Shown piece by piece: positions 19,846 to 23,253 of a stretch of 54,060 bases of DNA (positions within the stretch are counted from its first letter, which is position 1; each line of letters opens with the position of its first letter). The position numbers and the translations under genes were made by a program. The DNA is from Candidatus Iainarchaeum sp. (GTDB lineage Archaea > Iainarchaeota > Iainarchaeia > Iainarchaeales > VGJJ01). The notes under the pieces are model-generated. The model saw nothing but the letters and a program-made list of their open reading frames with translations, was not told the origin of the DNA and did no database searches. The DNA is taken from positions 1 to 54,060 of the forward strand of contig JACQJG010000016.1 of assembly GCA_016198125.1 (NCBI GenBank), given 5' to 3'.

Positions 19846-22596
19846 ATGGGACGAAAAGAAGAAATGGCCAGGCGCGCGCAAAGCCTCATGGGCAACCAGA
19901 AAGACGTGCGCAACATTGGAATTGTCGCACACATAGACCACGGAAAATGTGTTAGCCCAGGTACGCGCTTACTCTTCTCTGATGGACAAGCCGTCACTGC
20001 CAAGGACGTTTTTGAAAGACTATCCGAAAAGGGGAAGATTGTTCGGGAAAATGCGAATGAAATCGTATACGAGTTAAACGAAGAAACCCCTCACGTCTTT
20101 TCCTTAAACAAGGCCACACGGGCCATTGAAACTAAACGCATTTCCCATGCATGGAAACTAAAAGGAGGCAGAACGCTCAAAGTAAAACTTCGCAATGGAA
20201 TGCAAGTTGAAACAACGCCCGAACACAGGTATTTGGTGTTTGATGGGGGTGAATTCGCTGAAAAAATGGCAATGAACCTTGAAATAAATGATAGAATAGT
20301 TGCTCTCGCAAACCATTCTGCTTATTTTACTGAAATAAAACACGAAACGGGAAATCAACTTGCCTTACAATTAGTTAATCCTGCAAATTTAATGGTTGAA
20401 CCCATTGAAATTGAAAAAATAGTTGAAAGCTATTGTGAAACAGTTTACGATTTCACTATCAAGGAAAACCACAATTTTATCGCGGAAGGAATGGTTATTC
20501 ACAATACAACCCTCTCAGACTTCCTCATCGCGTCCGCCGGCCTTATTTCAAAGGAGCTTGCAGGAAAACAGCAGTTCATGGATTTTGAGGACCAGGAACA
20601 GGAAAGGGGAATTACAATCAACGCGGCCAACATTTCCCTTGTGCCCAGCGTTAACGGAAAAGAATTCCTCTTGAATCTCATTGACACTCCGGGACATGTT
20701 GATTTTGGAGGCGAAGTAACAAGGGCCATGCGCGCCGTGGACGGGGTTATTTTGGTCGTGGATGCCGTGGAAGGCGTCATGCCGCAAACGGAGACCGTGA
20801 TTAGGCAGGCACTGCGCGAGAATGTTAAACCCACGTTGTTCATCAACAAGTGCGACCGCCTCATCAAGGAATTAAAAATCGATGAAAAGGAAATGCAAAA
20901 CCGCTTTGTGAAAACCATTACCCAGGTAAACAACCTCATCCGAAAAAATGCACCCGAACAATTCAAGGAAAAATGGCAGGTCAACCCAGCCCATGGAAGC
21001 GTTTCGTTTGGAAGCGCATTCAATCACTGGGCGGTTAGCGTACCTTCCATGCAGCGCACGGGCATCAATTTCAAGCACGTGTATGATTACATGCTGAATG
21101 ACAAGCAGAAAGACCTTGCAGGCAAAAGCCCGCTGGACCAAACCATTTTTGAAATGGTGTTAACCCATTTGCCCAGTCCCGTGGAAGCCCAGGCATACCG
21201 AGCCAAGGTCATTTGGTCCGGAGACCCTGAAAGCCCATTGGGAAAGGCTATGAGAACCTGCGACATTCAGGGACCGCTGGCCATGATGGTTACGGATGTA
21301 AGCGTGGACCCGCATGCAGGAGACATTGCAACTGGAAGGCTCTACGCAGGAAAAGTCCACAAGGGGGTTAAAATCAAGCTCATTGGACTGCAAAAGGAAG
21401 CCATTATTCAGCGCGTGGGCGTGTACATGGGACCTGAATTCGTTGAAATCGAGGAGGTTCCTGCAGGAAGCATTGCAGCCATTGTGGGGTTAAAGGAAGC
21501 ATTTGCGGGCCAGACCATTTCCACTGAAGAAATGCTTGAATTTGAGAGCTTTAAAACAAACGTTGAACCGGTCATTACAGTTTCCATTGAAGCCAAGCAA
21601 ACAAAAGACCTGCCCAAGCTCATTGAAGTGCTGCGCCAACTCACCAAAGAGGACCCGAATCTGCGTGCCACGGTAAACCAGCAAACTGGAGAGCACCTGC
21701 TCTCAGGAATGGGAGAATTGCACTTGGAAATCAACCAGTACCGCATTGAAAAACACCACCACGTTCCAATTACCGTAAGCCCGCCCATTGTGGTATACCA
21801 TGAGTCCATTACAAAGGAATCCCCTTCTTTGGAGGGAAAGAGCCCCAACAAGCACAACAAGTTCCTCATGCGCGTGGAACCCATTCCAAGAGACATCTTC
21901 GAAAAACTCGCGCTGGAAAAAATTCAGGCCAAGGTGCGCCCAAAAGACAAAGAACTGGTGCAAAAATTCATTGACATTGGATTTGACAATGACACTGCAA
22001 AGAAGGTCTGGTGCGTGCACAACAACAACGTGCTTGTGGATGCAACCAGGGGCATACAGGCATTGCACGAAGTCAAGGAACTGGTCATCCAAGGCTTCCA
22101 GGATGCCATGAATGAAGGCCCGCTTGCCAAGGAAAAATGCGCAGGCATGACCGTGTTCCTGGAAGATGCAAAACTGCACGAGGATGCCATTCATAGAGGA
22201 CCTGCCCAAGTCCTGCCCGCGATTACAAGAACCATTTACGCGTGCATGCTTTCATCCGACCCTATTCTCCAAGAGCCCAAGCAAACCCTTACCATCACGG
22301 TTCCCCAAGACTTTTTGGGTGCTGTGTCAAAAGAATTGGGGGCAAGGCGCACGCAAATTCAGGAAATCCGCATGGAAGGAGATACCAATATTGTCATTGG
22401 CATTGCGCCTGTCAAGGAACTCATCGGGTTTGCGGCTTCCATGAGAGGGGCCACGCAAGGAAGGGCCATGTGGACTGCAGAATATTATGGCTACGAACCC
22501 CTGCCCAGGGAACTCCAAAAAATAGTGATCACGGAAGTACGCAAGCGCAAGGGCCTGGATCCGGAAGTAAAGCCTGCAGGATTCTTCTTGGAATGA
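19846..22596 (+). CDS. fusA: Elongation factor 2, precursor interrupted by an intein
   Basis: 916-residue precursor; removing the intein (residues 35-220) gives a 730-residue EF-2, the usual archaeal length. It drives GTP-dependent translocation on the ribosome. The intein splits the G1/P-loop between Lys34 of AHIDHGK and Thr221 of TTLSDFL, so GTP binding needs splicing. Other motifs: DFEDQEQERGITI (switch I), DTPGHVDF (G3) and NKCDR (G4). The diphthamide site is intact: His783 of the precursor, His597 after splicing, in DAIHRGPAQV. This position corresponds to the known modified histidine near residue 600 of archaeal EF-2. The gene follows rps7. Confidence 0.97.
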   Translation: MGRKEEMARRAQSLMGNQKDVRNIGIVAHIDHGKCVSPGTRLLFSDGQAVTAKDVFERLSEKGKIVRENANEIVYELNEETPHVFSLNKATRAIETKRISHAWKLKGGRTLKVKLRNGMQVETTPEHRYLVFDGGEFAEKMAMNLEINDRIVALANHSAYFTEIKHETGNQLALQLVNPANLMVEPIEIEKIVESYCETVYDFTIKENHNFIAEGMVIHNTTLSDFLIASAGLISKELAGKQQFMDFEDQEQERGITINAANISLVPSVNGKEFLLNLIDTPGHVDFGGEVTRAMRAVDGVILVVDAVEGVMPQTETVIRQALRENVKPTLFINKCDRLIKELKIDEKEMQNRFVKTITQVNNLIRKNAPEQFKEKWQVNPAHGSVSFGSAFNHWAVSVPSMQRTGINFKHVYDYMLNDKQKDLAGKSPLDQTIFEMVLTHLPSPVEAQAYRAKVIWSGDPESPLGKAMRTCDIQGPLAMMVTDVSVDPHAGDIATGRLYAGKVHKGVKIKLIGLQKEAIIQRVGVYMGPEFVEIEEVPAGSIAAIVGLKEAFAGQTISTEEMLEFESFKTNVEPVITVSIEAKQTKDLPKLIEVLRQLTKEDPNLRATVNQQTGEHLLSGMGELHLEINQYRIEKHHHVPITVSPPIVVYHESITKESPSLEGKSPNKHNKFLMRVEPIPRDIFEKLALEKIQAKVRPKDKELVQKFIDIGFDNDTAKKVWCVHNNNVLVDATRGIQALHEVKELVIQGFQDAMNEGPLAKEKCAGMTVFLEDAKLHEDAIHRGPAQVLPAITRTIYACMLSSDPILQEPKQTLTITVPQDFLGAVSKELGARRTQIQEIRMEGDTNIVIGIAPVKELIGFAASMRGATQGRAMWTAEYYGYEPLPRELQKIVITEVRKRKGLDPEVKPAGFFLE
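19948..20505 (+). other. Mini-intein in the P-loop of EF-2
   Basis: 186 codons in frame within fusA. Splicing motifs in order: block A begins with Cys1 (CVSPGTRLLFSDG); block B contains ETTPEHRYLV with Thr90 and His93; block F reads VYDFTIKENHNFIAEG; block G ends VIHN with penultimate His and terminal Asn. The next extein residue is Thr. All residues normally needed for splicing are present. Between blocks B and F only about 70 residues remain, with no LAGLIDADG or HNH motif, so it has no homing endonuclease. Its second half is noticeably A/T-richer than the extein, suggesting separate origin. Confidence 0.95.
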
Positions 22597-22654: not shown

Positions 22655-23062
22655 TCATTTATGGGAATAAAACTGCAGGCCGTTAATCCTTTGGAAATGA
22701 GAATGGTTGCGTGTTAGGATGGACGCGTTCCACTGCTTTGCAGTAGCCGCGATGAAAACGTCACGCGAATCTATAAGCGTTCCTTTTCCTTTCAAGTCCA
22801 TGGTTATTGCAGCCGCAATGGATGCAGTTATTTCATCAAACGGAAAAACGGGCACTTTTTTCAAAAACCGCTCTGCGGTATCCAAGTTATCCTTCCGCAT
22901 TTGCAGTTCATACGCGGTTACGGCGCTGACAAAAACCTGCACGGTTTGTGATTGAAAAACGTATTTGAAGGCAGAAGACTCATGGCCTTTCAAAAAATCG
23001 ATGATGACGTCAGTATCTAAACAGACCCTTTTCCCCAGTTTTTCCACTGTTTCCGAATCCAT
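22655..23062 (-). CDS. vapC: PIN-domain ribonuclease toxin (VapC)
   Basis: 135 residues. PIN-domain motifs: CLDTDVIIDFLKG near the N-terminus (first acidic cluster), AYELQM (Glu), and DSRDVFIAATAKQWNASILTRNHSHF (Asp plus the TRN motif). VapC toxins cut tRNA or rRNA when free of their antitoxin. The reading frame overlaps the end of the vapB gene by 46 bases, more than the usual few, so the pair is tightly coupled. It is on the opposite strand to its neighbours, between fusA and tuf. Confidence 0.87.
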   Translation of the reverse strand: MDSETVEKLGKRVCLDTDVIIDFLKGHESSAFKYVFQSQTVQVFVSAVTAYELQMRKDNLDTAERFLKKVPVFPFDEITASIAAAITMDLKGKGTLIDSRDVFIAATAKQWNASILTRNHSHFQRINGLQFYSHK

Positions 23063-23253
23063 TCACCCATCTCCCTATCAGCAGGCGTGTCCTTCCACGT
23101 TCCCTTGAGTGCAAGCAATTCCTGATAGCGGTTTTTGTTCGGGTCTTTTTTCAAGAAGGATTCCAACAACTCCGTGAAACTCATCTTCTTTGCCTCCTTC
23201 ACCCGCTTGAGTTTCTCATAGGTTTCATCCGCAATCATAATCGTTTTCGACAT
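23017..23253 (-). CDS. vapB: VapB-type antitoxin
   Basis: 78 residues. The N-terminus KTIMIADETYEKLKRVKEAKKMSFTELLESFL is a ribbon-helix-helix-like DNA-binding module of the kind found in archaeal VapB antitoxins; the charged C-terminal part would wrap the toxin. It precedes and overlaps vapC. The promoter shows two CTGTATA repeats over the TATA box, consistent with self-repression. The mRNA is probably leaderless, because the TATA box lies only about 26 bp from the ATG. Confidence 0.85.
   Translation of the reverse strand: MSKTIMIADETYEKLKRVKEAKKMSFTELLESFLKKDPNKNRYQELLALKGTWKDTPADREMGEWIRKQWKNWGKGSV

What the first reader, a model, noticed from the sequence alone, without database searches (positions are those of the whole stretch)
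19948..20505. Endonuclease-free mini-intein that breaks the GTP-binding P-loop of EF-2
The 186-residue insert has every splicing block (Cys1, TxxH, VYDFTI..NHNF, His-Asn end, Thr +1) and separates AHIDHGK from TTLSDF, so no EF-2 can bind GTP before splicing. EF-2 is essential and normally single-copy, so all translocation would depend on this splicing step. P-loop inteins are known in other GTPases and ATPases (for example IF-2), but I do not recall an archaeal EF-2 P-loop mini-intein as a standard case. The absence of an endonuclease suggests long vertical retention or possible control value.
Basis: partly seen in the sequence, partly recalled or inferred. Interest (0 to 1): 0.85.

Follow-up and report, generated by a model that had tools for sequence, protein, structure and literature searches.

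The report
EF-2 P-loop mini-intein in Diapherotrites archaeon
A self-splicing protein insert (intein) interrupts the GTP-binding loop of the essential translation factor EF-2 in a small-genome archaeon; the same insertion site is occupied in dozens of other archaea, so this is a slimmed-down copy of a widespread mobile element and not a one-off.

Summary
Positions 19948-20505 encode a 186-aa endonuclease-free intein between HGK and TT of the aEF-2 P-loop, with all splicing residues present and a confident HINT-fold model (pLDDT 91.8). The held 71%-complete genome shows no second EF-2.

The "not a standard case" claim fails. A scan of 84,980 species for AHxDHGK+Cys found about 65 archaeal EF-2 loci with an intein at exactly this site, from Halobacteria, Thermoplasmata, Bathyarchaeota and Nitrososphaeria to several DPANN groups, including the isolate Halorutilus salinus. 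In the window's own phylum 11 of 87 genomes have it. Most are 480-610 aa with a LAGLIDADG endonuclease. The window intein falls inside a DPANN clade of such inteins and lacks the ~350-residue endonuclease segment; three other small inteins at the site arose independently.

"Long vertical retention" is not supported: all three family relatives have an intact P-loop, presence is patchy, intein and host trees conflict elsewhere, and GC3 is 0.35 against 0.58 in the host gene. Best reading: a homing intein acquired horizontally that lost its endonuclease. No paper on an EF-2 intein was found in the open-access library. Regulatory use is untested.

The parts
19846..22596 (+). aEF-2 precursor gene, 916 aa, intein included
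   Evidence: TIGR00490 1028.7 bits, GTP_EFTU, EFG_III, EFG_IV, EFG_C
19846..19947 (+). N-extein, 34 aa, ending VAHIDHGK (first part of the P-loop)
   Evidence: sequence
19948..20505 (+). mini-intein, 186 aa, Cys1 to His185-Asn186
   Evidence: PF14890 80.9 bits; intein_Nterm and intein_Cterm; AF2 HINT model pLDDT 91.8, Foldseek to solved inteins
19948..19950 (+). Cys1, N-terminal splicing nucleophile
   Evidence: invariant in 57 of 57 (the search pattern itself required Cys here)
20215..20226 (+). block B TPEH (T90 to H93)
   Evidence: H93 57 of 57, T90 56 of 57
20302..20391 (+). linker, residues 119-148, where relatives carry the ~350-aa endonuclease
   Evidence: profile match jumps from position 118 to 471 of 519; low model confidence at 121-140
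20443..20478 (+). block F VYDFTIKENHNF (D168)
   Evidence: D168 57 of 57
20500..20505 (+). block G His185-Asn186, C-terminal cleavage
   Evidence: N186 57 of 57, H185 56 of 57
20506..22593 (+). C-extein, 696 aa, starting TTLSDF (Thr+1, rest of the P-loop)
   Evidence: TIGR00490 positions 31-720 of 720

Best explanation
This is an endonuclease-less member of a widespread archaeal intein allele that occupies the bond after the Walker A lysine of EF-2. The precursor is made as one 916-aa chain; the HINT domain is expected to splice itself out by the class 1 route (Cys1 N-S shift, transesterification by Thr+1, Asn186 cyclisation), joining HGK to TTLSDF to give a 730-aa EF-2 with an intact P-loop. 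The lineage most likely received an endonuclease-bearing form horizontally and later lost the ~350-aa endonuclease, so the element can no longer home by itself and stays because exact deletion is rare and faulty splicing would be lethal. Shown: anatomy, site, family, absence of the endonuclease segment, patchy distribution. Inferred: splicing activity, dependence of translation on it, order of events.
For: Anatomy and profile matches. 57 complete inteins at the identical bond, 46 of them 483-611 aa and mostly with LAGLIDADG motifs (Pfam LAGLIDADG_3). Window intein inside a clade of 18 DPANN EF-2 inteins (97/93), 16 of which keep the endonuclease; the same clade appears when IF-2 and own-genome inteins are added (97/99). 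Profile of those 16 matches the window at 1-118 and 471-519 of 519. Family relatives intein-free with EF-2 clade support 100. Host-intein tree conflict for L133, AU p 0.00014. GC3 0.355 against 0.578. HINT fold.
Against: No splicing data. The draft genome is 71% complete, so another EF-2 cannot be fully excluded. A single origin of all the order's inteins with vertical descent and many losses is not rejected (p 0.13). Low GC3 could partly reflect weak codon selection in the intein; another intein of this genome (RecJ-like) is equally low (0.37).
Confidence: 0.88

Rival explanations
1. Retained regulatory mini-intein: it has been kept for its effect, splicing is conditional (redox, temperature, metal) and gates global translation.
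For: The position blocks GTP binding, the host is essential, mobility is lost, and conditional splicing is reported for the Pyrococcus horikoshii RadA intein (PMC5790916, abstract). A second cysteine (C163) stands just before block F.
Against: Relatives of the same family lack the intein; C163 is not conserved (2 of 57); patchy distribution and foreign-like GC3 fit a mobile element.
Confidence: 0.07
2. The intein came to EF-2 recently from the homologous P-loop site of a paralogous GTPase (IF-2 or aIF2 gamma).
For: The same HVDHGK bond is occupied in IF-2 of other archaea (L151-L155) and in an aIF2-gamma-like gene of the family relative G003 (L143).
Against: In the tree the window intein lies inside the EF-2 inteins (97/99) and the IF-2 inteins form their own clade (99/99); the G003 intein is a long, distant branch.
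Confidence: 0.03
3. The interrupted gene is a dead or redundant copy and a second intact EF-2 exists in the unassembled part.
For: The genome is a 71%-complete draft.
Against: Open frame over 916 aa, intact active site, host gene groups with its family; one AHxDHGK EF-2 site in nearly every relative.
Confidence: 0.02

Closest known systems
Other archaeal EF-2 P-loop inteins found here (e.g. Halorutilus salinus L144, 533 aa; Diapherotrites L064 and L090)
   Same: identical insertion bond HGK^T, Cys1, HN end, same clade for the DPANN ones
   Different: most carry a LAGLIDADG endonuclease; the window lacks it
Small EF-2 P-loop inteins L074 (170 aa), L055 (197 aa), L108 (222 aa)
   Same: same site, no endonuclease
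   Different: different clades and different linkers, hence independent losses
IF-2 P-loop inteins (L151-L155)
   Same: homologous bond in a related GTPase
   Different: separate clade, endonuclease present
Walker A inteins MCM-a and VMA-b (PMC10643990) and RadA
   Same: inserted directly after the Walker A lysine
   Different: ATPases, other intein lineages
Solved mini-inteins PabCDC21-1, PhoCDC21-1, PhoRadA, TvoVMA
   Same: HINT fold, Foldseek E 6e-13 to 5e-11
   Different: about 20-23% sequence identity, other hosts

Membership tests
Class 1 intein | Cys/Ser at position 1 | tested here: met
   Cys1
Class 1 intein | block B TxxH | tested here: met
   TPEH, T90 and H93
Class 1 intein | C-terminal His-Asn and Cys/Ser/Thr at +1 | tested here: met
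   H185-N186, Thr+1
Class 1 intein | HINT fold | tested here: met
   AF2 pLDDT 91.8; Foldseek to solved inteins
Class 1 intein | autocatalytic splicing | not testable with these tools
   needs an assay
Mini-intein | no homing endonuclease domain | tested here: met
   no Pfam match and no dodecapeptide; ~350 profile positions missing
EF-2 P-loop intein allele | insertion between Lys and Thr of AHxDHGK^TT in aEF-2 | tested here: met
   same bond in about 65 loci
EF-2 P-loop intein allele | groups with other inteins of the site | tested here: met
   starred clade of 18
Regulatory (conditional) intein | splicing rate responds to a physiological signal | not testable with these tools
   only a non-conserved C163 as a hint

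The most novel reading that the evidence does not exclude
Splicing of the EF-2 P-loop intein acts as a post-translational gate on all translocation (for example by redox through Cys1 or C163), so that an immobile mini-intein has been kept as a translation switch.
Probability: 0.07. Interest if true: 0.85.

Novelty: new member of a known kind. Interest (0 to 1): 0.4.

Why it matters
It shows a widespread, apparently little-described intein site in the P-loop of an essential translation GTPase across many archaeal phyla, with at least four independent small endonuclease-free forms. That is a natural series for asking how inteins persist after losing mobility, and a cultured host (Halorutilus salinus) makes the splicing dependence of translation testable.

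Tried and rejected
Unique or rare EF-2 site: rejected. Long vertical retention: not supported. Recent origin from an IF-2 intein: disfavoured. Endonuclease remnant in the linker: 56 of 500 shuffles score as well, so none detectable. Viral carriers: one pattern hit in the viral collection, not an EF-2 intein. Monophyly of all inteins of the window's order: neither shown nor rejected (p 0.13). Literature searches found no EF-2 intein (papers looked into), but InBase itself and one prokaryotic intein survey were not available. Five hits (L045, L047, L051, L085, L106) are chance matches, and L114 by its N-extein looks like IF-2.

Full report
Observation. The ORF 19846-22596 translates to 916 aa. 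Residues 35-220 are an intein: Cys1 at 19948, TPEH, VYDFTIKENHNF, and VIHN ending at 20505, then TTLSDF. The exteins together are aEF-2 (TIGR00490). The intein matches PF14890 with 80.9 bits and no endonuclease family. The P-loop AHIDHGK-TT is cut right after the lysine, so nucleotide binding by the precursor is very unlikely (inference from P-loop chemistry).

Genome. The window is contig 8 of a 0.85-Mb, 71%-complete draft; the EF-2 C-extein hits only this gene and, weakly, EF-1A.

Distribution. In the phylum 11 of 87 held genomes have Cys directly after AHxDHGK, in 7 families and 9 genera. The three other genomes of the window's family have the uninterrupted AHIDHGKTT. Over 84,980 species the same pattern gave 71 stretches, of which about 65 are archaeal EF-2 with an intein start and, where the locus is long enough, nearly always an N^TT or N^ST junction that leads back into EF-2. 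By record title they come from Halobacteriales, Halorutilus, Methanonatronarchaeales, Thermoplasmata, Bathyarchaeota, Nitrososphaeria/Thaumarchaeota, Geothermarchaeota, Hadesarchaea, Methanopyri, Aenigmatarchaeota, Nanosalinarum, Woesearchaeota, Nanoarchaeota, Micrarchaeota and Diapherotrites. The pattern demands Cys1 and an exact AHxDHGK, so the count is a lower bound.

Anatomy of the family. Of 57 complete inteins (window included), 46 are 483-611 aa, most with LAGLIDADG dodecapeptides; six Thermoplasmata ones are 309-319 aa, one Methanopyri one is 365 aa, and four are small: L074 170, window 186, L055 197, L108 222 aa. The small ones are separate on the host tree (4 changes) and in different parts of the intein tree: L108 is sister to the endonuclease-bearing L082, L074 sits among haloarchaeal forms, L055 next to Thermoplasmata forms. 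The window intein is in a DPANN clade of 18 (97/93) whose other members, except L108, keep the endonuclease. A profile of those 16 matches the window at positions 1-118 and 471-519 of 519: about 350 residues are missing, and a short unrelated linker is left, which is also the low-confidence stretch 121-140 of the model. Loss and not primitive absence is inferred from this nesting.

History. On the EF-2 extein tree the window groups with three intein-free relatives at support 100, and presence/absence needs 8 changes over the sampled set (the set is enriched for carriers, so this is no rate). Host and intein trees conflict for L133, whose EF-2 is next to L063 and L113 while its intein is not (AU p 0.00014). 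GC3 of the window intein is 0.355, against 0.578 in the C-extein (0.53-0.62 in equal-sized windows) and 0.43-0.61 in 17 other genes of the window. Together these favour horizontal acquisition followed by endonuclease loss. They do not exclude an older presence in the order with many losses (p 0.13).

Mechanism. With C1, T90/H93, D168, H185, N186 and Thr+1 present and a HINT model close to solved CDC21, RadA and VMA inteins, ordinary class 1 splicing is expected. Splicing itself, its rate and any regulation are not shown. Insertion behind the Walker A lysine is a recurrent site: reported for MCM-a and VMA-b (PMC10643990), and seen here for IF-2 and for RadA of the same genome.

Novelty. The intein is a new member of a known kind. 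The EF-2 site family may be poorly described: no paper in the searched open-access library reports it, but that library is partial and InBase was not searchable. From memory I do not know a catalogued EF-2 allele; this is no evidence of absence.

Noticed in passing
G000 contigs C11, C12, C15, C16 (L138-L142): The small genome holds six further inteins, all 483-633 aa: RadA (two), a PilT/VirB11-like ATPase, a RecJ/DHH-like protein, DNA polymerase II large subunit and an RFC subunit (host names read from sequence). The EF-2 intein is the only mini among them.
   Followed up: partly
L138 (G000:C11:39500-47500): RadA of this genome has the Walker A-like stretch GRFASSK^TQ, with Ser in place of the usual second Gly, and an intein after the Lys.
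   Followed up: no
window 22655-23253, - strand: A VapBC-like toxin-antitoxin pair (PIN domain 22655-23062; VAPB_antitox 23017-23253) lies between EF-2 and EF-1A on the opposite strand.
   Followed up: partly
L143 (G003:C148): A family relative has an aIF2-gamma-like gene with an intein at the homologous HVDHGK^TS bond, in a frame that is broken inside the intein (decay or assembly error).
   Followed up: partly
L033/L093 (G024:C54): The EF-2 intein of this relative has an in-frame stop in block F (VYDFTD*NTHNF): either decay, which would kill EF-2, or a sequence error.
   Followed up: partly
L068/L147 and L105 (Nanosalinarum sp. J07AB56): Two EF-2 N-terminus plus intein starts on one scaffold; the first breaks off after about 38 intein residues next to a run of N, the second is whole. 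Possibly a duplication or an assembly artefact.
   Followed up: no
L056, L060, L089, L091, L107, L110: Thermoplasmata EF-2 inteins are uniformly 309-319 aa without a LAGLIDADG motif; the one tested, L060, matches no endonuclease family in Pfam. The nature of the extra segment is open.
   Followed up: partly
L043 (G039:C80): A LepA-like (bacterial type) gene sits in a Diapherotrites draft genome; probably contamination.
   Followed up: no
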